DNA of 22,114 nucleotides. Source: a virus. The notes beneath the pieces were generated by a model, which saw only the letters and a list, made by a program, of their open reading frames with translations, searched no databases and was not told the DNA's origin. This document shows, piece after piece, positions 4,270-18,003 of the stretch (positions are counted from its first letter, which is position 1; the number at the start of each line of letters is the position of its first letter). Location of the stretch: positions 1-22,114 of the IMG/VR virus record IMGVR_UViG_3300044467_000068. One strand, 5' to 3'. Made by a program: the position numbers and the translations under genes.

Positions 4270-4974
4270 TTAAATCAAACACCTAACAACTTCAAATCCC
4301 TCTGCCGATCCCATCCCCACGCTAGAACCCATAAAACAGGCCATTACTTGAATGAGTTCTGCCGATCTTGGATGAGGGAATTCTCTTACCTCTGTATCAT
4401 AACATTTTAGCGCTCTAATTTTTAGTTCCGTGAATGTCGCAATATCAAAAAATACATTCGGTGAGAAACTTCCAAAAGATGAAAATGCCCATTCCGTACT
4501 AGATGGAATAGGAAACGTATATATAGCTGATACTCTATGCTTATCCTTCATCGGTCTTGTCGCCGTCAATACTGCCCTGTGGGTTATAACATGATCAATA
4601 TTCAAATCTTTCTGGGAATGTGTGAATATGCAATCCGGTTGTAACTCATCGATAAGCTCTTCTATCGACCGAACAATATTTATAAGTGGTATGCAATCAA
4701 ATTGATTATCTGGAAAATCTGCAAATCTCAAGCGTTTCTTTACATCTGATTTCGATACACCCATTAACACCGATATCGCAGCTCTAGATTTATCTTTGAT
4801 CTTTTCCCTTTCGATATCATCCATAATTTCATCAGGTCTTCTCGCCATTGTTCCATAACTTAAATATGCGATATACACATCTTGGTTATCAACCCTGACC
4901 GATCTTGCTATCACTCCTCCACAACCTAACACTTCGTCATCTGGATGAGCTGAAATTATAAGAATATCCGCCAT
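4270..4974 (-). CDS. PIG-L / LmbE family N-acetyl-sugar deacetylase
   Basis: A 234-aa zinc-dependent deacetylase of the PIG-L family, which removes N-acetyl groups from amino sugars. The N-terminal AHPDDEVLGCGG is the metal-binding and catalytic motif (His-Pro-Asp-Asp), and DHVITHRAV around residue 130 supplies the third metal ligand. I chose the ATG at 4974 (MADILII) because GGGAGGG lies just upstream and the previous stop is 1 nt away; the frame is also open to 4989. It is the last gene of the glycan operon. Its likely job is to deacetylate the nonulosonic acid or a precursor so that another acyl group can be added; the exact substrate cannot be read from the sequence. Confidence 0.88.
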   Translation of the reverse strand: MADILIISAHPDDEVLGCGGVIARSVRVDNQDVYIAYLSYGTMARRPDEIMDDIEREKIKDKSRAAISVLMGVSKSDVKKRLRFADFPDNQFDCIPLINIVRSIEELIDELQPDCIFTHSQKDLNIDHVITHRAVLTATRPMKDKHRVSAIYTFPIPSSTEWAFSSFGSFSPNVFFDIATFTELKIRALKCYDTEVREFPHPRSAELIQVMACFMGSSVGMGSAEGFEVVRCLI

Positions 4975-4975
4975 G

Positions 4976-5671
4976 TTATTCCCTCCCATACTCTCCCATC
5001 AGAAATCTTGCTATCCTTAGATCATTCTGAGTATTAATATCCATCGCTCTTTCTTCACTCACATAATATGGCATCATACTCGGCATATAAAAATCTTCAT
5101 ATTGCATGAACTTTTTAGTTCTCACAAATATAACAGACCCATCATGGATATATCCCTGCTCTAATTCCGTATGCTGGGTATCAATATCCTCTGGGAACAT
5201 AGGTTCAACTAACCCCGTTGTTTTATTTATTCGAAGTGAATGCCTTGGCGGATATCTCAAATTACTCACACTCATTACACCATTTATGTCTTGGTGCTTA
5301 TCCAACAATGCTGATGCCGTCCTTAAATCATTAGCATTTCTTAATGGTGAAGTCGGAATAACAAGCCCCATATTTTCAAACGCATTTCCTTCTGCATAAT
5401 ATATTTCTAGTAGATATCTCACCAATGTCCTCAATTTACAGAAATCGCCACTTAAACTTGGTGGTCTTAAATGTAAAACTACTTTATATTTTGAAGCAAT
5501 TTCCAGATAACTTCGATCATCACTAGTGACCACAATCTCCGAGAAAACCCCACTATCAATCGATGTCTGGATCGCATACTCTAATAATGTTTTTCCATTA
5601 ATAGTCTGGATATTTTTATTTACCAGACGTTTCGATCCACCCCTTGCCGGGATAATCGCCAATGCTCCCAT
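4976..5671 (-). CDS. CMP-nonulosonic acid synthetase (NeuA/PseF/LegF family)
   Basis: A 231-aa cytidylyltransferase that activates a nonulosonic acid with CTP to give the CMP-sugar used by glycosyltransferases. The nucleotide-binding signature IIPARGGSKRL is at the N terminus, followed by VTSDD, a VIPTSPLRNANDL segment and a C-terminal AMDINTQNDLRIA metal-binding region. I chose ATG 5671 because GGGGGAG precedes it by 7 nt; the frame opens at 5689. It abuts the deacetylase gene with 1 nt between stop and start. B. subtilis SpsF, from spore-coat polysaccharide synthesis, belongs to a related group. Which acid is activated cannot be told from sequence. Confidence 0.9.
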   Translation of the reverse strand: MGALAIIPARGGSKRLVNKNIQTINGKTLLEYAIQTSIDSGVFSEIVVTSDDRSYLEIASKYKVVLHLRPPSLSGDFCKLRTLVRYLLEIYYAEGNAFENMGLVIPTSPLRNANDLRTASALLDKHQDINGVMSVSNLRYPPRHSLRINKTTGLVEPMFPEDIDTQHTELEQGYIHDGSVIFVRTKKFMQYEDFYMPSMMPYYVSEERAMDINTQNDLRIARFLMGEYGRE

Positions 5672-5689
5672 AAGTTTCTCCCCCATCAC

Positions 5690-6352
5690 TCATATTAACA
5701 TTGCCACTAAATTCCACACTGCCTCTGTATTTCCCACATTTGGTTTTATATTTTGATTTATTTTATGTTCGAGTACTTCTATCTCAAATCCCGACTCCCC
5801 GAAAACTGTAGATATATGTGCCTCTGTACTAAAATGAACCTTTCCACATTTAATAAATTTACCTTGTTCAAATGTAAACGTATATGGATCTTTGCCTTGA
5901 CTTCCCAACCTTCTTTGTCCATGTTCCCAAGAAAACCAATCAATTCCAATAAACTTCCCTTCCGGCATTAATTTATCAGAAATAAATGTGAGCGAATCCA
6001 TGATGCTCGCAGTGTCATTATGCGTCAAGGAACTCCTATCGATAACAAGATTAAACTTCATATCAAAAGGTATATTTTTTGTAAAATCTCCATTGATAAT
6101 CTTACCCGCTAATTCTGGATATTTATCTCTGATCATTTTTACTGCCGTAGGACTTCCCTCGATAGCATAATAATCCACACCAATAGATAGGAAATACGGG
6201 ATATTCGCACCAATACCCGGCCCTAATTCTAAGACCTTATCACCAGCGACTAAATTACCATATCTATTTACATATTTAATTAGATCCGTCCAAGGCCAAA
6301 GTGAATGACTCATACCCTGACTATACCTTTCTTCCCATTCTTTACAGAACAT
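5690..6352 (-). CDS. Class I SAM-dependent methyltransferase
   Basis: A 220-aa Rossmann-fold methyltransferase. Motif I is LELGPGIGANIPYF, followed by DYYAIEGSP (motif II acid), an NGDF turn and LVIDRSSLTHN (motif IV region). The ATG at 6352 overlaps the previous stop as TGATG, a coupled start; an in-frame ATG at 6388 preceded by AGAGAGG is possible. Sitting between a TylF-like enzyme and the CMP-sugar synthetase, it probably methylates a hydroxyl of the sugar or of an acyl substituent. No base-flipping DNA methylase motifs (DPPY, PCQ) are present, so a DNA target is unlikely. Confidence 0.82.
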   Translation of the reverse strand: MFCKEWEERYSQGMSHSLWPWTDLIKYVNRYGNLVAGDKVLELGPGIGANIPYFLSIGVDYYAIEGSPTAVKMIRDKYPELAGKIINGDFTKNIPFDMKFNLVIDRSSLTHNDTASIMDSLTFISDKLMPEGKFIGIDWFSWEHGQRRLGSQGKDPYTFTFEQGKFIKCGKVHFSTEAHISTVFGESGFEIEVLEHKINQNIKPNVGNTEAVWNLVAMLI

Positions 6353-7035
6353 CACTCCACCACCATATAACTCATTGTCGGACACCATGGAAACCTCTCT
6401 AGTTTTATATTTCTAATTCCAAGTATTTCCTGAATTGCAATTGTCTCGCCCGGCCAGTTCATATTGTTTGCTTCATCAAATGCGATTATCGAGCCTTTAC
6501 TAAATCGATCCTTGCATAAATCTAAACAAACTTTCGTCGGTTCATATATATCAAAATCAAAATACGCCAAGGAAATTATCGTTTCTGGATGTCTAAAAAG
6601 ATATTCCGGCATAGTCTCAACAACATCACCTTTTACTAACTCATGCTTTGTTATCTGTGTTATCGGACTCTCTTTCTCTTGCTCCGCCAATACTTTCCCC
6701 AAATAATAACGATACCCTTCTGAGACCCCCATATCTCCGACTTTAGCATCTGCATCGTGATCCGACACATTCGGAAATCCCTTAAATGTATCAAATCCAA
6801 TAATTTTCCTCGTATAATTAAACGGTTCTAACATACCCCTAAAACATTCGAAGATCGCCATATCTTGACCCCATCTAACCCCAAACTCTAAAATATTTCC
6901 ATGAATTCCAAGAATTTTTTTATATAACTCATAAAGGAAAATAACTCTTGTCAAAGGTTGTCTTCTGATAAATAAATTCAGGTTCGATAATAATTCCTTC
7001 TCCGGTATCGGACATTCTTTAAATAAATTTATCAT
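6352..7035 (-). CDS. TylF/MycF-like sugar O-methyltransferase
   Basis: A 227-aa protein of the TylF/MycF family, SAM- and metal-dependent O-methyltransferases named for macrolide deoxysugar enzymes and common in surface-glycan clusters. Signatures are LEFGVRWGQDMAIF (SAM loop), GFDTFKGFP (about residue 85), LAYFDFDIYEPT (metal-binding acids) and GSIIAFDEANNMNWPGE near the C terminus. The start ATG overlaps the upstream stop by 4 nt (ATGA) and the stop overlaps the next start, so it lies inside a translationally coupled operon. Its likely role is O-methylation of the nonulosonic acid. Confidence 0.85.
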   Translation of the reverse strand: MINLFKECPIPEKELLSNLNLFIRRQPLTRVIFLYELYKKILGIHGNILEFGVRWGQDMAIFECFRGMLEPFNYTRKIIGFDTFKGFPNVSDHDADAKVGDMGVSEGYRYYLGKVLAEQEKESPITQITKHELVKGDVVETMPEYLFRHPETIISLAYFDFDIYEPTKVCLDLCKDRFSKGSIIAFDEANNMNWPGETIAIQEILGIRNIKLERFPWCPTMSYMVVE

Positions 7036-7778
7036 CTTATACTCCCATCCAAAGTTATTTTTTTGATATTGCTACTCATGATTATGTCTAACGACCTCGG
7101 CCCTTCATTGAATAATAAATCAATGATGCCCATATAAGGGATAAACTCACCATGAAGCTGGGTATACTTTGGGTGAATGTATTCTTGGAAATAAGGAACT
7201 ATATTACATTCCCTAAATGCCGATCTGTTAGCATAATTTTGACCCTGTCCACCAAATATATAAATGTCAGCTTCCAACTTTTTACACATGTCTAAGACAA
7301 GATCATTCTTCGATCCTTCAAATTTATATTTTGCTGCATAATCAATTTCTGTCTTTATTCCCAATGTTTTTAAATACCAATCAAACATAAAATTATTTAG
7401 TTCAATGAGATATTTCCAATCTCTTTTATAAACATCTTCAAAGAATGCTGCATAATCATTAAAATATCTGGCCTTTTTATATGCCAGATAAATTGACTTC
7501 CAATGTTTTTCTTTCCATCTAGTTTGGTTATTGATTTCAATATCAGATATTTTCTTACTTCGATGATCTTTATTCAATACTGGAACACTCAACCATATAT
7601 ATCCTCTGTCAGTCTTGATCTTATTTCGATTCATCCAATCCTTACTGCAATACTGGACTTGATCAAAATGTACGAACTTATCTGCGATCGCTATTTTATG
7701 AAACAACCCCATCCACGGGAGAAAACTGCTCTGGTGTGCAGTAAGAACCATCTTTTTATTCGGGGTTAATACAGGCAT
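7032..7778 (-). CDS. WbqC-like family protein
   Basis: A 248-aa member of the WbqC-like family, often found in O-antigen and nonulosonic acid clusters and of poorly defined biochemistry. The N-terminal block HQSSFLPWMGLFHKIAIADK, then FDQVQYCSKDWMNRNKIK and WLSVPV, are the conserved parts. A late IYIFGGQGQNYANRSAF segment is also typical. The ATG at 7778 is preceded by GGTGGTGA and overlaps the upstream aminotransferase by 13 nt. In sugar clusters such proteins are suspected to act in sugar acylation or amine modification; that role is family lore rather than something visible here. Confidence 0.85.
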   Translation of the reverse strand: MPVLTPNKKMVLTAHQSSFLPWMGLFHKIAIADKFVHFDQVQYCSKDWMNRNKIKTDRGYIWLSVPVLNKDHRSKKISDIEINNQTRWKEKHWKSIYLAYKKARYFNDYAAFFEDVYKRDWKYLIELNNFMFDWYLKTLGIKTEIDYAAKYKFEGSKNDLVLDMCKKLEADIYIFGGQGQNYANRSAFRECNIVPYFQEYIHPKYTQLHGEFIPYMGIIDLLFNEGPRSLDIIMSSNIKKITLDGSIR

Positions 7779-8728
7779 TTTTTCACCACCAAAATAATTA
7801 AATCGACCTCTTTATCAGTCATACTTGGATAAATTGGTAACGATACTGTTGTCCTAGTCATCTCTAAGGCATTCGGATAAAGATCCCTATCGCCTAATAA
7901 CTCGAACTCCTCGATCGGTACAATCGCCTTGATTCCATAACTATACATAGTATCAATTATTTTTCTCGCCCTATCAGTTTTCATAATAGCCCGATACCGA
8001 ACATCTGTTATCGATTTATCAGAACTTTTGACCATTGAAAAACCAGCAAGAACATATTTATTGAATATCTCTTCCCGGCGCTGAATGAACTTATTTATTT
8101 TAGATAATTGAACCCTCCCGATCGCTGCCTGTATATCTGACATTTGAAAATTAAACCGAGCAAGTAAATCACTCCTCATGTCAAATTCACGATAATCCCG
8201 AACCTCATCGATCCTTGCTTTATCTCGACTAACGATCGCTCCACCTTGTCCACCCGTCGTTATAATCTTCGTCGCAGAAAATGAGAATATTCCATAGTCG
8301 CAAAATGTACCGACATATTGATTATTAATTTTTGCACCTAATGCTTGAGCTGCATCCTCAATCATCGATCCATAAACATTATTTATTTGTTTAGGTATCC
8401 CGAACATATGAACAACGATATCAGTATGGATTCCAATGTCCATCGCTTCCGGTATAGATCCGGCTGCTATTATTGCATTCCTTACTGCCGAACACGTATA
8501 TAACGGATATGAAATATTTGATTTATGGGAATGCTTAACCGCAAGAAATAAAGCTGCAGTCCCACTACTTACTGCGACTGCATGACCTTCTGGAAGTCCT
8601 AGATAACTACATAATTCATTCTCAAATCTTTCGACTTCCCTTCCCGGCCCAACCCATCCAGATCCAATGATTCGGTTTGCTGCTCTCTGTTCATCAGATC
8701 CTAATGTCGGATAATTATGATCTATCAT
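7766..8728 (-). CDS. DegT/DnrJ/EryC1-family PLP sugar aminotransferase (second copy)
   Basis: A 320-aa PLP-dependent aminotransferase. AVSSGTAALFLAVK is the cofactor phosphate region, MIEDAAQALGAK carries the PLP-ring Asp, and FSFSATKIITTGGQGG contains the Schiff-base lysine. FQMSDIQAAIGRVQL and late LPIYPSMTD are typical of sugar aminotransferases. It is about 40 residues shorter than most family members, with a shortened region after the phosphate-binding loop. It overlaps the acetyltransferase upstream by 14 nt and WbqC downstream by 13 nt. It probably installs an amino group that the neighbouring acetyltransferase acylates. It differs clearly from the PseC-like enzyme at 12624-13700. Confidence 0.88.
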   Translation of the reverse strand: MIDHNYPTLGSDEQRAANRIIGSGWVGPGREVERFENELCSYLGLPEGHAVAVSSGTAALFLAVKHSHKSNISYPLYTCSAVRNAIIAAGSIPEAMDIGIHTDIVVHMFGIPKQINNVYGSMIEDAAQALGAKINNQYVGTFCDYGIFSFSATKIITTGGQGGAIVSRDKARIDEVRDYREFDMRSDLLARFNFQMSDIQAAIGRVQLSKINKFIQRREEIFNKYVLAGFSMVKSSDKSITDVRYRAIMKTDRARKIIDTMYSYGIKAIVPIEEFELLGDRDLYPNALEMTRTTVSLPIYPSMTDKEVDLIILVVKKCLY

Positions 8729-9176
8729 AATATCCCGCTCTAATATTCATCGGATTACCCCAAACCAAAGAATATGGAGGTATTTTCCCCGGCCCAACTA
8801 CCGAACCCGCAGCGATTACCGAATGATGACCTATGGATGTTCCACCTTTTATAACTGAATGTGAACCAATAAACACATTATTACCAATCCAAATCCTTTT
8901 TCTTTCAATTTTATCAACCAACCCGAGGCATACCTTATGAGAATCTGCAGCATTTATCGCAACGAATGAAGCTATATCACAATCATTTTGAATGATCACA
9001 TTAGTATTCTTAGCATTAACTTCCGAAAATGCACCAATATAAACATTCCTTCCAATTGTCGGTTTACCAGTGATGATAACAAATGGATGAAAATCATTAA
9101 CCTCAAGTCCGAGCACATCAAGTAATATTTTTTTGATCTTCTCCATGATTAATATCTTCATCTTGAAGTTTTTCAC
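8715..9176 (-). CDS. Left-handed beta-helix (hexapeptide repeat) acetyltransferase
   Basis: A protein of up to 153 aa with hexapeptide-repeat coils: PTIGRNVYIGAFSEV, IIQNDCDIASFVAIN, IWIGNNVFIGSHSVI and TSIGHHSVIAAGSVV, ending in IPPYSLVWGNPMNIRAGY, the usual close of O- or N-acetyltransferases of this fold. The candidate catalytic His is in NAADSHK. The frame opens with GTG at 9176, inside the end of the neuB gene; an ATG at 9146 is the other plausible start and neither has a strong ribosome site. It could supply the PseH/LegH-type or PglD-type acetylation in the pathway, or decorate the finished acid. The substrate is not determined. Confidence 0.83.
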   Translation of the reverse strand: MKNFKMKILIMEKIKKILLDVLGLEVNDFHPFVIITGKPTIGRNVYIGAFSEVNAKNTNVIIQNDCDIASFVAINAADSHKVCLGLVDKIERKRIWIGNNVFIGSHSVIKGGTSIGHHSVIAAGSVVGPGKIPPYSLVWGNPMNIRAGYYDRS

Positions 9177-10158
9177 CTCTCAAAATATCCCTTATAGCTT
9201 CTTGACCCAAGAATAAAACTATTTTCTCAGGTTGTAACCCATCCCCCGGCCTCATCATCCCTGTATTCTCATTCGTGAATTTATCACCCTTCTTTATATC
9301 TGATACTGCCGTAACACTTCTCCTTGCAATTTTCCTCATATTTTCTTCGTTCTTAGTTGGCTTTAATCCAGCATGCCCCATCATTTTATCTGCCCTCTGG
9401 ATCGCATCAATCCAACTTTTTAAAGCAGTAGGATTCTTACTGAATTTCTGATCCGGCCCCGGTATGGTATTTGACATAGTAAAATGTGTTTCGAATACTC
9501 TACCCCCAAATCCAACACCTAAAACTGCAGCAATATTCCCAATCGTATGATCTGAATATCCCAAAATAATATTCGGATAAGCTTTCCTTATCTTATCCAT
9601 TTTTTTCATATTGACTTCGTCCGGCATCGTCGGATACAGAGACGTACAATGTAATAATATAATTGGATAGTCCGTCTCATCTCCCCTTATTGTCAACACT
9701 GCTTTATCAATTTCATCTTGATAAGACATTCCGCAACCGACTATAATCGGTAATCTTGTTTCCGCATATCTTTTCAAGAGAGGGAGATTGGTAAGATCAT
9801 CCGACCCGACCTTGATCGCCTTTACTCCTAATTTTAAAAGTATTTCTAGGTCACTATAATTCTGCGGTGTCGAAAGAAATGTAAGATTTAACTGATCGCA
9901 TACCCTCTTGATCGTTTTCCAATCTTCAATTTTAAGTTCACACTGTTTAAATGTCTGATACAATTCTGCTTTTGGGTTACAAAATTCATCTGCCTTAAAC
10001 GTCTGGAATTTGATTGCATCCGCTCCCGATCTCTTAGCAGTTCCCACCATTTCCAGCGCCATTTTCAAGCTGCCATTATGATTAATGCCAGCCTCTGCAA
10101 TCGTGTATGGTCTGTGATACCGACTTATCGTTCTTCCTCTAATTTGTATCTCTCTCAT
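9118..10158 (-). CDS. NeuB-family nonulosonic acid synthase with SAF domain (complete active site)
   Basis: A 346-aa synthase of the NeuB/PseI/LegI/SpsE family, which condenses phosphoenolpyruvate with a six-carbon amino sugar to give a nine-carbon acid. The TIM-barrel motifs are all present: IAEAGINHNGS (PEP-binding Glu), GADAIKFQTF, IKVGSDDLTNLPLL, LLHCTSLYP, and both metal-ligand histidines, in GYSDHTIG and FETHFTM. The C-terminal SAF domain carries GMMRPGDGL with the substrate-binding Arg. It overlaps its paralogue upstream by 4 nt (ATGA). Motifs cannot separate sialic, pseudaminic and legionaminic synthases; the upstream PseB/PseC-like genes favour a pseudaminic-type precursor. Confidence 0.92.
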   Translation of the reverse strand: MREIQIRGRTISRYHRPYTIAEAGINHNGSLKMALEMVGTAKRSGADAIKFQTFKADEFCNPKAELYQTFKQCELKIEDWKTIKRVCDQLNLTFLSTPQNYSDLEILLKLGVKAIKVGSDDLTNLPLLKRYAETRLPIIVGCGMSYQDEIDKAVLTIRGDETDYPIILLHCTSLYPTMPDEVNMKKMDKIRKAYPNIILGYSDHTIGNIAAVLGVGFGGRVFETHFTMSNTIPGPDQKFSKNPTALKSWIDAIQRADKMMGHAGLKPTKNEENMRKIARRSVTAVSDIKKGDKFTNENTGMMRPGDGLQPEKIVLFLGQEAIRDILRGEKLQDEDINHGEDQKNIT

Positions 10159-11228
10159 ATAAAACTACACCAATCTGACCAAGTAAGTACTTCGTCTTTC
10201 TTGATATCCCTATTCACTCTTTTTCCAATCATCTGATCTGCATATAAAGGTGAAACACCAGTCCCCGGCCTCTTCGCACCTAACATATTTTTAACCATAA
10301 CTTCACCTTCGACTATGTCACGATTAGCAACTATACTAGTGAAATATAAACTTTTCATTGATAAATCTTCGATCGAAGGTTTTAGATTCTTTTCCCCTAA
10401 CGCCTTTTCTGCTTGTCTAATCGATAAAATCCATTTCCTAAACTCTACCGGATCAAGTGATTTTATATGATGATGTCCAATAGTATTTCTATCTAGCGTC
10501 AATCTTTTTTCAATCAGATTAGCACCTAAAGCGATCGCCATTGAATCGGCAATAATATCCCTAGTATCTGCAGCATATCCAATCGGGATATTTAACATCT
10601 CTTTGAGATAAGGAATTCCGTTTAAATTTATTTTCTCGATCGAACTTGCATGACTACAATAAACGAGCATGACCTCTCTAGCCCCATGCTTTTCTAGGAA
10701 CTCAATGATCTGGACAACCTCACCCATGATTGCCGGGCCTAGATCTATCTGAATGGGTTTCCCTGTCCTCGCAACTGCCTCAAGAAGGGGGTAATTCCTC
10801 AAATCCCACGATCCTATTTTATAAGCAGAAACGTTTGCATCTTCTGCCCATTCCACACTTCGAATAGAATCGACAGATAAATAAAAAGTGATCCCTATCT
10901 TTTTAGCATACTTAGCTAATTCAATAAGTTCAAATGGTTGAAATTGATGCTTTTTAAGCATCTCAAACATATTTTCTTCTTTAGCACCTTCACTAGTCTC
11001 ATATCTATAATTAACTGTCCTGTCTGACATAAACTCTTCACAATCAATAGTTTGAAACTTTACTGCATCCGCCCCAGCTTCCTTCGCTTCATAGATAAGT
11101 TCTTTAGCCACCTCTAACGAACCGCAAGCAGTAACACCAGTTTCAACGACAATAAAAACTGGCTTCCCATCGCCAATTTTATTTTTATCTATCTCGATAC
11201 AAGATTTCAGATCACTTCTAATTTGCAT
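10155..11228 (-). CDS. Divergent NeuB paralogue lacking both metal-ligand histidines
   Basis: A 357-aa NeuB-fold protein with SAF domain (KRPGTGVSP near the C terminus). The barrel is recognisable from GADAVKFQTI, YKIGSWDLRNYPLL, MLVYCSHASS and LDPVEFRKWILSIRQAE. At key points it departs from the family: the PEP-site motif xEAGxNHxG reads VETGVTACGS, the SDH of the first metal ligand reads AAD (GYAADTRD), and the KHFT of the second reads KRLT. I chose ATG 11228, two nt after the sigma-factor stop with GGGGGA upstream; a TTG at 11234 would overlap. It may be a pseudoenzyme partner of the intact synthase or catalyse a related condensation without that metal site. The whole frame is open, so it is not decaying. 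Confidence 0.85.
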   Translation of the reverse strand: MQIRSDLKSCIEIDKNKIGDGKPVFIVVETGVTACGSLEVAKELIYEAKEAGADAVKFQTIDCEEFMSDRTVNYRYETSEGAKEENMFEMLKKHQFQPFELIELAKYAKKIGITFYLSVDSIRSVEWAEDANVSAYKIGSWDLRNYPLLEAVARTGKPIQIDLGPAIMGEVVQIIEFLEKHGAREVMLVYCSHASSIEKINLNGIPYLKEMLNIPIGYAADTRDIIADSMAIALGANLIEKRLTLDRNTIGHHHIKSLDPVEFRKWILSIRQAEKALGEKNLKPSIEDLSMKSLYFTSIVANRDIVEGEVMVKNMLGAKRPGTGVSPLYADQMIGKRVNRDIKKDEVLTWSDWCSFI

Positions 11229-11230
11229 CT

Positions 11231-11743
11231 TCAAATTTCCCCCAATTTGAGTTTCGCAATTTTTTCCCTAGTTTTCTTAGCCAACCTACTCACATATGCA
11301 CGGGATATCTTTAAGACATCCGCCACATCTTTTTGTGGTAGATCATAATAGAATAACATCTCGATAATTGTTTTTTCATAATCCTCAAGCGTCGCAAATA
11401 TTTCCTTGAGCACTATCAGATCTAGAATTCTTCCATATTCTACTGGACAGGATTCATCTGGTATTCTGTTATCCATAATTTCAAGTGTTTCATATGATAC
11501 TGGTCTTTTCCGCATTAACATTTTGATCTCGTTTTCAATACATCGTCCTGCATACGTAGTAAACTTAGCTCCCTTGTCAGGATTAAAAGTCAACCCCGCT
11601 TTGCATAACCCATATGCTGCATTACAAAAAACCTCGTCATATGAATACTCTATGTTTTTAGCTGTATACCTTTTAGCTATATATCCGGCAAGACAAATAT
11701 TATCTTCAACAAGTTTCTTCTGCTCCTCCGTCATCTTTTTCAT
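11231..11743 (-). CDS. Sigma-70 family sigma factor, SigE/SigK-like (second copy)
   Basis: A 170-aa sigma factor. Region 2 reads YDEVFCNAAYGLCKAGLTF and GAKFTTYAGRCIENEIKM, matching the GTKLATYAARCIENEILM signature of sporulation factors SigE/SigK. Region 4 reads QKDVADVLKISRAYVSRLAKK, close to QREIAKELGISRSYVSRIEK of SigK. It is shorter than host SigK (about 240 aa) and lacks the pro-sequence and most of region 3. ATG 11743 has GGGAGG 7 nt upstream. Its stop is 2 nt before the neuB paralogue start, so the sigma factor and sugar genes are co-transcribed. It may redirect host RNA polymerase to phage late promoters or to mother-cell-type promoters. Confidence 0.9.
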   Translation of the reverse strand: MKKMTEEQKKLVEDNICLAGYIAKRYTAKNIEYSYDEVFCNAAYGLCKAGLTFNPDKGAKFTTYAGRCIENEIKMLMRKRPVSYETLEIMDNRIPDESCPVEYGRILDLIVLKEIFATLEDYEKTIIEMLFYYDLPQKDVADVLKISRAYVSRLAKKTREKIAKLKLGEI

Positions 11744-11781
11744 TGCTTTACCTCCCGACAAAGTAAAGCCAAGAGATAAAA

Positions 11782-12372
11782 TTATGATACCTCTTGTCTG
11801 CTAGATTTTTCACTGAAATTTTTTAACTTTTGAATGATCCTTTTTTCCAATCTACTTATATATGATTGAGATATTTTTAACTCATCGGCGATTATCTTCT
11901 GGGATTTCATATGGAAATACCTCGAAATAATTATCTGTATCTCCCGATCCTTCAACATCCCTAATGCCTCTTTCGCACACATGATGTCTAATATCTCATT
12001 GTATTTTAGATGATCATCATTACTAAGCATTCCCTCTAAACTAGCTTGATTACCATTATTATCCTCTGTCAAGATTTCACTTAGATAAATATCAGTCCCA
12101 TTTCTTGACTGATTTCCTTTTTTCCTGAAAGCCATCTTAATTTCATTTTCCATACATCGCCCAGCATATGTCGCAAACTTTGCCCCCTTATTTGGATCAA
12201 ACGTCCGCGCTGCCTTACAAAGTGCAAAGGAAAACATGGAAAATATTTCATCATAATCAAAGTTCCTGACTCCACCCTTGAGCCATTTATTAGTCATATA
12301 TCTAGCAAGGTTTATATTATCCTCTACCATTTTTTGTTGTTCCTCTGTCATCTTCCTTTGCATCGTTAACAT
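11782..12372 (-). CDS. Sigma-70 family sigma factor, SigE/SigK-like (first copy)
   Basis: A 196-aa sigma factor with NLARYMTNKWL (region 1.2/2.1), YDEIFSMFSFALCKAARTF, the promoter-melting segment GAKFATYAGRCMENEIKM, and a region 4 HTH reading KIIADELKISQSYISRLEKR. ALGMLKDREIQIIISRYF resembles the LDDREKEVIVGRFGL of SigK. It is a diverged paralogue of the gene directly downstream, about 38 nt away. ATG 12372 is 8 nt after GGGGGG; an ATG at 12378 lies too close to that site. The C-terminal tail (SEKSSRQEVS) is extra. Two adjacent copies suggest duplication with different promoter choice or timing. Confidence 0.9.
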   Translation of the reverse strand: MLTMQRKMTEEQQKMVEDNINLARYMTNKWLKGGVRNFDYDEIFSMFSFALCKAARTFDPNKGAKFATYAGRCMENEIKMAFRKKGNQSRNGTDIYLSEILTEDNNGNQASLEGMLSNDDHLKYNEILDIMCAKEALGMLKDREIQIIISRYFHMKSQKIIADELKISQSYISRLEKRIIQKLKNFSEKSSRQEVS

Positions 12373-12424
12373 AGCCATTTCCCCCCAAAAAATAAAAAAG
12401 GAAATGATTTTGTTTTCATTTCTC

Positions 12425-12631
12425 TCAAACTTTATTCTGCTCTTTGAATCTTTCTTTACTTGGATTCGTATCTATCTTATGATCCCCACACCAATCATGT
12501 TCTGGATAAACTGCCGGATATCCATTCATCGTTGGCGCTTTCCTCCGGCATCTCCCAATCTCTAATGTTTTCGGTGAATAAAATGCACACGTCGAACAGG
12601 AAAATCCGGTTTTTCGATCCCATCTATCCAT
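12425..12631 (-). CDS. Small CxxC zinc-ribbon-like phage protein
   Basis: A 68-aa protein with four cysteines in a CSTCAFY ... GRCRRKAP ... WCGDHK arrangement. This recurrent pattern in small phage proteins suggests one bound metal ion. No enzymatic motif is present. The ATG overlaps the PseC-like stop and uses the GGGAGGAGG in the end of that gene as its ribosome site, so it is translated with it. The function is unknown. A role as a small DNA- or RNA-polymerase-binding regulator is possible, since the sigma genes follow, but that is a guess. Confidence 0.75.
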   Translation of the reverse strand: MDRWDRKTGFSCSTCAFYSPKTLEIGRCRRKAPTMNGYPAVYPEHDWCGDHKIDTNPSKERFKEQNKV

Positions 12632-13700
12632 TTTTTACCTCCTCCCCAACTTCCCTCAATGCTGCAATAACCACCTTTTGCTCGGCATCGGTAAGGCCCG
12701 GGAATAACGGAATAGTCAATAAGTACTGCCACATTCTTTCTGCTACTTGCGTTTGGCCCGGTAGGTTATAAAAACTTTGAAGGGTAACTGGCTTGTAGTG
12801 GATCTGAGTTTTTACCCGATACTCTAATAATTTATCGATATATTTATCTCGATATTTCGTTGCAATAATATAAATATGTCTCGCGTTCGTCCTATCCCTT
12901 TTCTGGATAATCCTACCGAGATTCATATCGTCGATCGCTTCGTCATAAACTTCCGCCAATTTTTGTCTTTCCCATACCAATTCAGGGATTCTCTTTATCT
13001 GATTGAGGCATAACCCCGCGTGGATATCCGACATACGATAATTATAACCAAGAAAAATCATGTCCCCGAATACCCGACCATGATTTCTAAATGCTTTCAT
13101 TCGGGCATGAGCGTGTAAATTATCGGTCGTTATAACTCCACCTTCTCCACTCGTTATCAGTTTCGAAGCATGCAGACTGAAACAATTTAGATCTGCAAGA
13201 GTCCCGACCTTTTGATCTTTATACGTTGCACCTAACGAATGACATGCATCTGCTATGATTTTAAGACCATGCATTTCCGCTATTTCCTTGAGCTCACTAT
13301 AATCCGCGGGTTGGCCCGCGAAATCAACAGGTATAATTGCCTTTGTCCTCTCGGTTATCTTCCTTTCAACATCCTCTGGATCAATCAAGAGTGTCTTTTC
13401 GGATACATCTGCGAATATGGGACTTGCATTCATATACCTAACGGCATTAGCAGTCGCCACAAACGTCATGGACGGCACGATCACTTCATCACCCGGTCCG
13501 ACCCCTGCTGCCATTAATGCCATATGAAGCGCTGCCGTTCCACTTGAAACTGCTACAGCATATTTAGATCCTACCGATCTCTTGAATTCATCCTCGAATG
13601 CTTCAATGATCTCGCCTTGGGTTATCGATTTACTCCGTAATACTCGGACAACTTCTTCGATGTCCTCTTCTTCGAGATGGTGTCTTGCATAGGGAATCAA
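12624..13700 (-). CDS. pseC: PseC-like UDP-4-keto-sugar aminotransferase
   Basis: A 358-aa DegT-family PLP aminotransferase resembling PseC, which transaminates the 4-keto product of PseB. It begins IPYARHHLEEEDIEEVVRVL with SITQG shortly after, as PseC does. AVSSGTAALHMALMAAG, IPVDFAGQPAD, IADACHSLGA and FSLHASKLITSGEGG (Schiff-base Lys) are the cofactor motifs. YNYRMSDIHAGLCLNQIKR and a late HYKPV segment follow. The start is TTG 13700 with TTGAGGAA just upstream. Its partner dehydratase lies 3.3 kb upstream, separated by the arrays and unknown genes, so the pathway is split over the accessory region. Confidence 0.86.
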   Translation of the reverse strand: MIPYARHHLEEEDIEEVVRVLRSKSITQGEIIEAFEDEFKRSVGSKYAVAVSSGTAALHMALMAAGVGPGDEVIVPSMTFVATANAVRYMNASPIFADVSEKTLLIDPEDVERKITERTKAIIPVDFAGQPADYSELKEIAEMHGLKIIADACHSLGATYKDQKVGTLADLNCFSLHASKLITSGEGGVITTDNLHAHARMKAFRNHGRVFGDMIFLGYNYRMSDIHAGLCLNQIKRIPELVWERQKLAEVYDEAIDDMNLGRIIQKRDRTNARHIYIIATKYRDKYIDKLLEYRVKTQIHYKPVTLQSFYNLPGQTQVAERMWQYLLTIPLFPGLTDAEQKVVIAALREVGEEVKNG

Positions 13701-14196: not shown

Positions 14197-14221
14197 TTTC
14201 TGGTCAATAAAAAGATGACCA
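14197..14221. promoter_or_regulatory. Inverted repeat and 10-mer shared with the 16.5-kb leader
   Basis: TGGTCA (14201-14206) and TGACCA (14216-14221) form an inverted repeat with a 9-nt loop just upstream of the gene starting at 14177. The 10-mer TTTCTGGTCA (14197-14206, plus strand) recurs at 16491-16500 upstream of the gene starting at 16475. Both sites lie at the gene-proximal edge of a repeat array. An operator, a processing hairpin or a weak plus-strand terminator (CTTTTTTT follows) are all possible. Confidence 0.35.
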
Positions 14222-14259
14222 CTTTTTTTAAAAATGATCACCAAGATATAAAATATTAA

Positions 14260-14894: not shown

Positions 14895-15587
14895 TCATCC
14901 GACCTTAAACATCCCAAACTGGCCACCTTTTTCTGGCCTGTTTTCTCCTAACCCAACAGCAAATCCAGCTATATTCAATAGATTTGCTAACTGTGTCGGC
15001 GTAATAACATCTGCATTGAACTCGATATTAACTTCTGCCGACCACTCCCTAAAAAACGGTCGATATCTAAGATCCGATACACCACTTGATAACCTAACAG
15101 TGTCTTCCCTCATTTCTGGTGGATTACTTTTTATTTCAAGGAATTCACCTTCAATGAAAAAAGCTCCGAATATGGATACTTTATCCTTTGTTACTTTTGC
15201 TCTATACCCACCAGATGCCATTGCTTTTTTTAGTCCGGTGGAAGGAAATCCAAATGTCGCTCCAAGATCAATGTATTTTTGAAATTCATCATGGATTGCA
15301 TTTTCTCTTTGTTCAAATTCAAGATGTGCATACTTGGTAAAATCGAATTCCGGCTTTGCATTATACCAATATAATGATTCTACGAAATCCCTTGCCGGAC
15401 TTCTCCACTCTTTAACCTTTGTCTTCCCTACCTGTTTCCCTAGAATTTCCCTTTTGGATTTTTCAGTGAATGCATGGACTAATAACGGAGTTGTTCCAAT
15501 TATGGTCATCGAAGTTTTTTGCTTGTTCATCTGTGGTATTTTAATTACCATAGATTCACTTTCTTTTGTCACCACTGTCCTTGCCAT
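14895..15587 (-). CDS. Phage protein of unknown function (GGQFG C-terminal motif)
   Basis: A 230-aa protein without a recognised enzymatic motif. Notable segments are MTIIGTTPLLVHAFTEKSK near residue 25, FGFPSTGLKKAMASGGYRAK in the middle, and at the C terminus LRYRPFFREWSAEV followed by AGFAVGLGENRPEKGGQFGMF. The last block is the kind seen in a recurrent family of phage hypothetical proteins. I chose ATG 15587, which has AGAGGGGG 8 nt upstream; the frame is open to 15659 but that start has no ribosome site. It stands alone between two non-coding stretches with its own likely promoter. The glycine-rich C terminus suggests a nucleic-acid-binding or RAMP-like fold, which is speculation. Confidence 0.75.
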   Translation of the reverse strand: MARTVVTKESESMVIKIPQMNKQKTSMTIIGTTPLLVHAFTEKSKREILGKQVGKTKVKEWRSPARDFVESLYWYNAKPEFDFTKYAHLEFEQRENAIHDEFQKYIDLGATFGFPSTGLKKAMASGGYRAKVTKDKVSIFGAFFIEGEFLEIKSNPPEMREDTVRLSSGVSDLRYRPFFREWSAEVNIEFNADVITPTQLANLLNIAGFAVGLGENRPEKGGQFGMFKVG

Positions 15588-15634
15588 ACCCACATTCCCC
15601 CTCTGGCATATTTGGTAACTTGTACCATATCCAA

Positions 15635-15663
15635 ATAATACCATACGATATGTGGACATGCAA
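15635..15663 (-). promoter_or_regulatory. Possible SigA-type promoter for the 15587 gene
   Basis: On the minus strand TTGCAT (15663-15658) and TATTAT (15640-15635) are separated by exactly 17 nt; the -35 is poor and the -10 good. Just downstream, GGTA-N5-TACC (15614-15626) is a short inverted repeat overlapping the expected 5' leader and could be an operator. The upstream gap to 15753 is AT-rich with poly-T tracts. Confidence 0.35.
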
Positions 15664-16211: not shown

Positions 16212-16475
16212 CTATGAAAATCTTACCCCTTTTTTCTTGCAAGCTGAAACCACATATGTTTCGTCCTCCGTCTTCTCAACAATAATAAGATATTCAGGAG
16301 GACACTCCCCTTTTTCTACCTCATCAAATAGATCCGACACAGCTATGTACTCAACTGAATTTTTATGGAACATCATTTCCGCCCTATATATTAACATTCT
16401 GCCAGTGATTGCCATTACTAATTCCGGCGATTCTAAAATATCTGTCCTCGAAATATCGAACGTTCCTAATCTCAA
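16212..16475 (-). CDS. Small hypothetical phage protein
   Basis: An 87-aa acidic protein of unknown function. The central part (EYIAVSDLFDEVEKGECPPEYLIIVEK) looks like a small alpha/beta domain. The start is TTG 16475 with AGAGGGAAG upstream, and it is the first gene after array 2. Its leader shares the 10-mer TTTCTGGTCA (plus strand) with the leader of the gene that follows array 1. The stop is 10 nt before the next start, so the two are probably co-transcribed. Confidence 0.6.
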   Translation of the reverse strand: MRLGTFDISRTDILESPELVMAITGRMLIYRAEMMFHKNSVEYIAVSDLFDEVEKGECPPEYLIIVEKTEDETYVVSACKKKGVRFS

Positions 16476-16514
16476 AGATTATCTTCCCTCTTTCTGGTCA
16501 GATTTTTAAATAAA

Positions 16515-17017
16515 TGGTTCGCTCTAACACAATGTTTCAATCTACGAATATGGCTCACTCATAGAATTTGTTTTTCATCGGATAATTTGGTTCACTCGCG
16601 TTATTTGGGGATGCTCATGACAATTGATTCACTCGCAAGGACTGGAACTCTCCTCCCTTGTGGTTCACTCCAAGCATCTGGTCATCTCTTGGGGATTGAT
16701 TCGCTCGTTTTCTTTGCTATCATCACACATTATGACTCTCTCAGTTGATATGATTCACTCTCAAATTCTGGATCGCTCATCTATGTTCGGTAAACCTCTA
16801 TACAATTGGCTCACTCATCTCACTTGTTACTATCTTTTATTTCGGATCACTCTTCCAATCTGAAAAGATCAACTGCATTGGTTCACTCGACTTGTTTGGC
16901 ACTCTCACGCACCTTGGTTCGCTCAGGTGTTATGTTACTATCCCTTTCCACTGGCTCACTCAATCGCTATGTTTTTAGTCTAGATATATGGTTCGCTCAT
17001 CACGAATGTTTTTAATC
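16515..17017 (-). repeat. Array 2: about 28 degenerate 18-nt repeats
   Basis: Coding-strand consensus GAGTGAACCA followed by 8 variable nt. On the plus strand, TGGTTCACTC-like words start at 16515, 16551, 16588, 16625, 16661, 16697, 16751, 16769, 16807, 16843, 16879, 16915, 16952 and 16989, each with at most two mismatches. Weaker TG-N6-TC words fill nearly every intermediate 18-nt step (for example 16533, 16569, 16606, 16643, 16679, 16715, 16733, 16787, 16825, 16861, 16897, 16933, 16970, 17007). Strong and weak units thus alternate, giving a 36-nt dyad. Spacing drifts to 19 or 20 at several steps, so the array is not read in one frame. It fills the whole gap between pseB and the next gene. 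The function is unknown. Confidence 0.85.
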
Positions 17018-17031
17018 TCTATGGTAATGGC

Positions 17032-18003
17032 TTACGAAATACCTTTTGCAATCTCTTCGATACTCAAGAAATCCTCATTCTCATCACTTACATATCTTGC
17101 TTTCTTGAACGGTTCTCCCTCGATCCTGCCTCTTTGAAACCAATTTTGGGGACTTTCTATAACAAAAAATTTACCAGCATCAATCGTCATTGGGGCTTCT
17201 TGCTCACTAATAAGGGCCTCATGCAATTTTTCCCCTTCTCGAATGCCGATAAATTTATTATTCGACTTTGGTGCTATAGCTCTTTTTAAATCAAGAATTC
17301 TAACGCTCGGAATCTTAGGGATAAATATCTCTCCACCGTGCATCTCCTTAATCGCACTCGCCACAACCTCACACGCCTTTTCCGGTTGTAACCAGAATCT
17401 TGTCATTCTTATATCCGTGATTGTGATCTCTTGTCCTTCTTCTCTCTGCTTTATCATGAGTGGCACAACACTTCCACGAGATCCAATTACATTTCCATAC
17501 CTAACACAACTAAAACGGGTTTTTGTTCCACTCGCATAGGCATTTCCATTAATGAATAATCTTTCAGATAAAAATTTAGTTCCTCCATATGTGTTACTCG
17601 GACTACACGCCTTATCTGTGCTTATACCCATGACCCGTTCAACATTTTCGTCGATCGCAGATTCAATCAGATTTTGAACCCCTATCACGTTTGTCTTAAC
17701 TGCCTCGTAAGGGTTATATTCACATGCAGGAACTTGTTTTAGAGCTGCAGCATGTATTACTATATCAATTCCGTGCAACGCTCTCCTGAGACGTTCCCTA
17801 TCCCTTACATCACCAATAAAAAAACGAATACGTTCATCATCGTATCCGTTCATTCTCATCTCATGTTGCTTTAACTCATCCCTTGAAAAAACAATAATCC
17901 TCTTTGGTTTTTCTTTTTCCAAGATCCATTTTATGAAATGTCTTCCAAAAGTTCCTGTCCCTCCGGTGATCAAAATTTGCTTATCTAAAAAGCAATACGG
18001 CAT
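17032..18003 (-). CDS. pseB: UDP-GlcNAc 4,6-dehydratase (PseB-like)
   Basis: A 323-aa short-chain dehydrogenase/reductase-fold enzyme that makes a UDP-4-keto-6-deoxy sugar. The NAD(P)-binding motif is ITGGTGTFGRHFI; FSRDELKQHEM is the PseB/CapE/FnlA signature that follows. HAAALKQVPACEYNPYEAV, STDKACSP and YGGTK (catalytic YxxxK) complete the active site, and GIREGEKLHEALISEQEA is the conserved C-terminal block. ATG 18003 has AAGGGGG at 18014-18020, overlapping the stop of the broken small gene upstream. With the PseC-like enzyme it supplies the first two steps of a pseudaminic-type pathway. It ends where array 2 begins. Confidence 0.92.
   Translation of the reverse strand: MPYCFLDKQILITGGTGTFGRHFIKWILEKEKPKRIIVFSRDELKQHEMRMNGYDDERIRFFIGDVRDRERLRRALHGIDIVIHAAALKQVPACEYNPYEAVKTNVIGVQNLIESAIDENVERVMGISTDKACSPSNTYGGTKFLSERLFINGNAYASGTKTRFSCVRYGNVIGSRGSVVPLMIKQREEGQEITITDIRMTRFWLQPEKACEVVASAIKEMHGGEIFIPKIPSVRILDLKRAIAPKSNNKFIGIREGEKLHEALISEQEAPMTIDAGKFFVIESPQNWFQRGRIEGEPFKKARYVSDENEDFLSIEEIAKGIS

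What the first reader, a model, noticed from the sequence alone, without database searches (positions are those of the whole stretch)
16515..17017. About 28 degenerate 18-nt repeats alternating strong and weak units
Words like TGGTTCACTC (GAGTGAACCA on the transcribed strand) start every 36-37 nt, with weaker TG-N6-TC words at the 18-nt midpoints, across the entire pseB-16475 gap. Spacers are unrelated and spacing slips to 19-20, so it is neither CRISPR nor an open frame. An array for a multimeric DNA- or RNA-binding protein, a centromere-like or packaging site, or a repetitive non-coding RNA would fit.
Basis: seen in the sequence. Interest (0 to 1): 0.78.

Follow-up and report, generated by a model that had tools for sequence, protein, structure and literature searches.

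The report
Phage array of dual-spacer guide RNAs
The odd alternating repeats are a TIGR array, a row of about 13 small two-part guide RNAs that a phage would use to steer a Tas protein to DNA; in this phage family the guides are spread over several places, tens of kilobases from the single tas gene.

Summary
In detail: on the minus strand at 16495-17017, 29 short repeats alternate between a strong word (GAGYGANYCA) and a weak word (GADWGTAHCA), separated by unrelated 8-9-nt spacers. This is a TIGR array (tandem interspaced guide RNA; Faure et al. 2025, PMC12045711): strong = edge repeat, weak = loop repeat, about 13 dual-spacer guides. The same repeat occurs in over 100 viral stretches; 66 of 114 carry one protein family close by. 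That family is Tas: above the NCBIfam TIGR-Tas cut-off, best solved-structure matches TasR and TasH, predicted fold matching them. Loop positions 3 and 8 covary as a base pair, so the unit works as RNA. The window is a 22-kb fragment without a tas gene, but five related 82-88-kb phages carry this array at the same place (directly after pseB), one nuclease-less tas gene 27-58 kb away beside a parA gene, and about 93-125 guides in several clusters. Spacers change about half as fast as the repeats between them. Natural targets were not found. The array is a known kind; arrays this far from tas, with this many guides, are a variant that the 2025 paper does not describe.

The parts
16495..17017 (-). 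TIGR dual-repeat array, about 13 complete dual-spacer guide units (edge-A-loop-B-edge); non-coding
   Evidence: the last weak repeat at 16495-16505 is doubtful
16515..16524 (-). last full edge repeat (GAGCGAACCA); most relatives end here with a truncated edge repeat GAGCGATCA(G/A)
16989..16998 (-). first full edge repeat (GAGCGAACCA), preceded by a loop-like repeat at 17007-17017
16661..16670 (-). edge repeat of the guide with spacers CAAGGGAG / GTCCTTGC, kept in relatives G001 and G003
17032..18003 (-). pseB-like nucleotide-sugar dehydratase, ends 15 nt before the array; an array sits downstream of pseB in all five relatives
16212..16475 (-). 87-aa protein of unknown function directly downstream of the array (homologue in the same place in 4 of 5 relatives)
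14214..14242 (-). terminator-like hairpin, the first on the minus strand after the array (13 pairs, T-run)
   Evidence: 4 sites found in the region vs 2.1 +/- 1.7 in shuffles, so weak

Best explanation
The repeats are a TIGR array: a non-coding transcript, probably made with the pseB operon, that is cut within the strong (edge) repeats into about 36-nt tigRNAs. Each tigRNA holds spacer A and spacer B (8 nt each) separated by the weak (loop) repeat. The shared GA (box D) and CA (box C) ends of both repeats would be held by a symmetric dimer of a Nop-domain Tas protein, so that spacer A pairs with one strand of a DNA target and spacer B with the other. In this phage family the Tas protein is nuclease-less (TasA), encoded once, 27-58 kb from this array, next to another array with the same repeats; so this array would act in trans. 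Shown here: array anatomy, RNA-level pair covariation, identity of the Tas family, conserved position, slower change of spacers than of repeats. Inferred from the published system: processing, RNP formation, DNA binding. Inferred and weaker: that the effect is to block or regulate DNA of competing elements or of the host, or to bias inheritance.
For: Repeat found in 114 viral stretches. One ~300-aa family in 66 of those 114 loci; of 28 records that were searched whole, mostly because the fetched piece lacked it, 21 have it. Family = Tas: phmmer to TasR 9mty E 3.9e-12 and TasH E 3.6e-7; NCBIfam NF052498 TIGR_Tas_endo 199.8 bits, cut-off 100; AlphaFold model pLDDT 87, Foldseek best hits all TasH/TasR, then IS110. 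Edge and loop share GA...CA ends with flat 8-nt spacers. Loop positions 3 and 8 covary: Watson-Crick 0.46 vs 0.29 +/- 0.02 shuffled, top of all position pairs. Spacer changes 0.09 per nt vs loop 0.21 and edge 0.17 in homologous units. Same array position and one tas in all five relatives. Definition of TIGR arrays read in PMC12045711.
Against: No tas gene in the 22-kb window itself. No terminator directly after the array, unlike typical TIGR arrays. The box letters (GA/CA) differ from the TasR boxes (UG/CCA), though boxes are said to diverge between systems. No natural target could be shown. No RNA data.
Confidence: 0.95

Rival explanations
1. A DNA site: iteron, centromere or packaging repeats bound by a protein such as the ParA-linked ~90-aa protein or the ParB-like protein.
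For: Regular direct repeats; the relatives encode a ParA-like ATPase and a small protein just upstream of tas; a ParB-like gene lies about 2 kb upstream in the window.
Against: Loop positions 3/8 covary as a base pair within one strand; all arrays lie on one strand; spacers are conserved better than repeats, the reverse of what a protein-binding DNA array would show; the repeat travels with Tas across unrelated phages.
Confidence: 0.02
2. A decayed TIGR array that no longer works: a relic in the late operon.
For: No tas in the fragment; loop repeats weak and one unit irregular at 16733-16778.
Against: Thirteen complete units with 8-9-nt spacers; spacers nearly intact against relative G003 while repeats drift; position kept in five relatives of 82-88 kb.
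Confidence: 0.05
3. A CRISPR-like, ToxI-like or coding repeat.
For: A 36-nt period recalls ToxI antitoxin RNAs (from memory); some collection hits of the pattern are coding repeats.
Against: Repeats are 10 nt and alternate; no Rfam family matches; no toxin or cas family among hits of the neighbouring genes; 14-18 stops in every minus frame.
Confidence: 0.01

Closest known systems
TIGR-Tas systems, dual-repeat arrays with TasA (Faure et al. 2025, PMC12045711)
   Same: Alternating edge and loop repeats of about 10 nt, 8-9-nt spacers, ~36-nt unit, boxes shared by both repeats, a paired position inside the repeat, nuclease-less Nop-domain protein, phage setting.
   Different: This array lies 27-58 kb from tas, inside the pseB late operon; each relative phage holds about 93-125 guides in several clusters (the paper: most often 5-15 units, arrays upstream or downstream of tas, sought within 5 kb); box letters GA/CA; tas sits beside parA rather than tasParB.
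[quoted passage not shown]
   Same: Nop-type RNA-binding protein; IS110 transposases are the next structural matches after TasH/TasR.
   Different: No transposase catalytic domain seen; arrays of short guides instead of a single bridge RNA or a k-turn guide.
CRISPR arrays
   Same: Guides interspersed with repeats in a directional array.
   Different: 10-nt alternating degenerate repeats, split 8+8-nt spacers, no cas genes seen.

Membership tests
TIGR dual-repeat array | Two alternating repeats of 8-12 nt | tested here: met
   Edge GAGYGANYCA (10 nt) and loop GADWGTAHCA (9-12 nt) alternate over 29 repeats
TIGR dual-repeat array | Variable spacers of about 9 nt (8-12), ~36-nt unit | tested here: met
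   25 spacers of 8 nt and 3 of 9; unit 36-38 nt; flat composition
TIGR dual-repeat array | Same box D and box C ends in edge and loop repeats | tested here: met
   Both begin GA and end CA
TIGR dual-repeat array | Covarying base pair inside the repeats | tested here: met
   Met in the loop repeat, positions 3-8; the edge repeat barely varies there and shows no signal
TIGR dual-repeat array | Nop-domain Tas gene next to the array | tested here: inconclusive
   Absent from the 22-kb fragment; in five relatives one Tas gene per contig, next to another array with the same repeats, 27-58 kb from this one
TIGR dual-repeat array | Array ends with a truncated edge repeat and a terminator (described as typical, not defining) | tested here: not met
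   Most relatives end in a truncated edge, but no terminator-like site follows before the next gene in the window
TIGR dual-repeat array | Processing to 36-nt tigRNAs bound by Tas | not testable with these tools
   Needs small-RNA sequencing
TasA (relatives' protein) | Nop-domain core related to TasR/TasH, no nuclease domain | tested here: met
   only the IS110-type C-terminal domain and weak spurious hits in Pfam, no RuvC or HNH family
CRISPR array | Near-identical 25-36-nt repeats with cas genes | tested here: not met
   10-nt degenerate repeats; no cas family among hits to the ten genes between 12624 and 20713
ToxI (type III toxin-antitoxin RNA) | Near-identical ~36-nt repeats, ToxN-like toxin | tested here: not met
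   Sequence between repeats unrelated from unit to unit; no toxin family and no Rfam match

The most novel reading that the evidence does not exclude
One phage genome stores about 100 dual-spacer guides in several arrays spread over its map, all served in trans by a single nuclease-less Tas protein encoded beside parA. The guides are kept between phages better than the repeats that frame them, so they face conserved targets, and they would act as RNA-guided blocking or regulation rather than cutting.
Probability: 0.4. Interest if true: 0.8.

Novelty: new variant of a known kind. Interest (0 to 1): 0.62.

Why it matters
What TIGR arrays target and why phages carry them is open. A phage family with about 100 guides per genome, some conserved in four or five relatives, gives many guide sequences to work from, and shows that searching only near tas genes misses arrays. 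Spacer conservation gives a handle on which guides are under selection.

Tried and rejected
Self- or kin-targeting: 450 distinct guides against 1.5 Mb of related and array-bearing contigs gave no exact composite target and no excess over wrongly joined controls. Third-codon periodicity of spacer changes: none. Covariation between spacers A and B: none, as published. Exact target scans of IMG/VR for four guides: two showed an excess at one gap size (AGGTTTCC/AAATTAGG, a guide conserved in all five relatives but not in the window array, 87 at gap 2 vs 18 and 9, mostly in-frame KLGWKP, which I recognise as a motif of nucleotide-sugar dehydratases; CAAGGGAG/GTCCTTGC of the window array, 55 at gap 0 vs 15 and 8, often in-frame K/RGGKD), but common in-frame motifs give such an excess by themselves and the two gaps disagree, so no target is claimed. 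A contig hit by two window guides (G016) was at chance level overall. Cellular genomes: most pattern hits have no tas in the fetched piece and several look like coding repeats; tas plus array only in an Acidobacteria MAG (L181), and a broken-looking tas plus array in Ammoniphilus resinae (L198). Host of the phage not determined: all isolates matched by portal and terminase are under 60% identical.

Full report
What was seen is there. Autocorrelation of the stretch peaks at 36, 18, 54 and 72 nt, beyond every shuffle. Parsed on the minus strand, 29 repeats run from 17017 down to 16495, alternating a strong word GAGYGANYCA with a weak word whose consensus in the family is GADWGTAHCA; spacers are 8 nt (25) or 9 nt (3), and no minus-strand frame is open.

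The pattern of three strong words at 36-nt steps was scanned through IMG/VR: 114 stretches matched (my own estimate of chance is well below one, not a tool result). A few are coding repeats of Staphylococcus-type surface proteins. Clustering all reading frames of these loci showed one protein family of about 300 aa in 66 of the loci. It matches TasR (9mty, E 3.9e-12) and TasH (3.6e-7) in the PDB, passes the NCBIfam TIGR-Tas cut-off, and its predicted structure (pLDDT 87) finds TasH and TasR first and IS110 transposases next. Of 28 records searched whole, most of them because the fetched piece lacked the family, 21 have it. For comparison, 74 of 50,697 annotated phage records gave even a weak match.

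The published definition (PMC12045711) is two alternating 8-12-nt repeats, edge and loop, with 8-12-nt spacers, processed to 36-nt tigRNAs; both repeats share box D at the start and box C at the end, and the boxes vary together. Here both repeats start GA and end CA. Inside the loop repeat, positions 3 and 8 covary as a Watson-Crick pair (0.46 vs 0.29 +/- 0.02 in shuffles; n = 336) and carry the highest mutual information of all position pairs. The edge repeat hardly varies at these positions and gives no signal. This is the main evidence that the unit acts as RNA.

The window is a 22,114-base virus record with no tas gene. Five related contigs of 82-88 kb (G001-G005) share its gene order: amidase, ArpU-like, terS, (parB-like), pseB, ARRAY, small gene, pseC, sigma factors, terL, portal (individual genes are missing or moved in some). 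Each has one tas gene, 27-58 kb from this array in contig coordinates, followed by further arrays, and at least one more cluster; the counts of edge repeats are 107, 125, 111, 111 and 93 for G001, G002, G003, G004 and G005. All arrays lie on the same strand as these genes. Directly upstream of tas lie a ParA-like ATPase, an ~90-aa protein and, in four of five, a ~250-aa protein. Arrays far from tas also occur in other phages: G012 (21 kb and more) and G014 (20 kb).

Between relatives, homologous units keep their spacers better than their repeats: with one spacer identical, the other differs at 0.09 per nt, the loop between them at 0.21 and the edge at 0.17. A unit shared by the window, G001, G003 and G004 (AATTATCC / AATTCTAT) shows a changed loop between nearly unchanged spacers. 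Units also appear in different order, so the array gains and loses whole guides. Pairs were accepted only if the second spacer had at most 5 of 8 differences, which favours the spacers somewhat, so the ratio is approximate.

Targets remain unknown. No composite target was found in the phages' own or related genomes. Scans for four guides gave chance-like or motif-driven hits. The order of the composite target (A, gap, reverse complement of B) is my derivation from the published cleavage geometry. The steps from array to bound DNA are therefore taken from the published system, and the biological purpose is inference.

Noticed in passing
L013:9590-11352 (G001) and the same place in G002-G005: tas lies at the end of an operon with a ParA-like ATPase, an ~90-aa protein and usually a ~250-aa protein without any Pfam match; the published link is with ParB, not ParA.
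   Followed up: partly
window 4270-13700: The late region carries a large sugar cassette: two NeuB/PseI-like synthases, PseF-like cytidylyltransferase, PseC-like aminotransferases, WbqC-like, PIG-L deacetylase, methyltransferase; suggests a phage that changes its own or its host's glycans.
   Followed up: partly
window 14895-15659: 254-aa protein (phrog_4652, unknown function) ending GLGENRPEKGGQFGMFKV, which by eye recalls the glycine-rich loop of RAMP-type proteins; not found in the five relatives.
   Followed up: no
window 11231-12378: Two adjacent, related sigma-factor-like genes, kept side by side in most relatives.
   Followed up: no
L198 (Ammoniphilus resinae): A TIGR array beside a tas gene that seems split over two frames; possibly a decayed system in a cultured strain.
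   Followed up: partly
G002 and G005 contigs: Both contigs repeat sequence at their ends (G005 inside an array, G002 around terL), so they are probably complete genomes a little shorter than the contigs.
   Followed up: no
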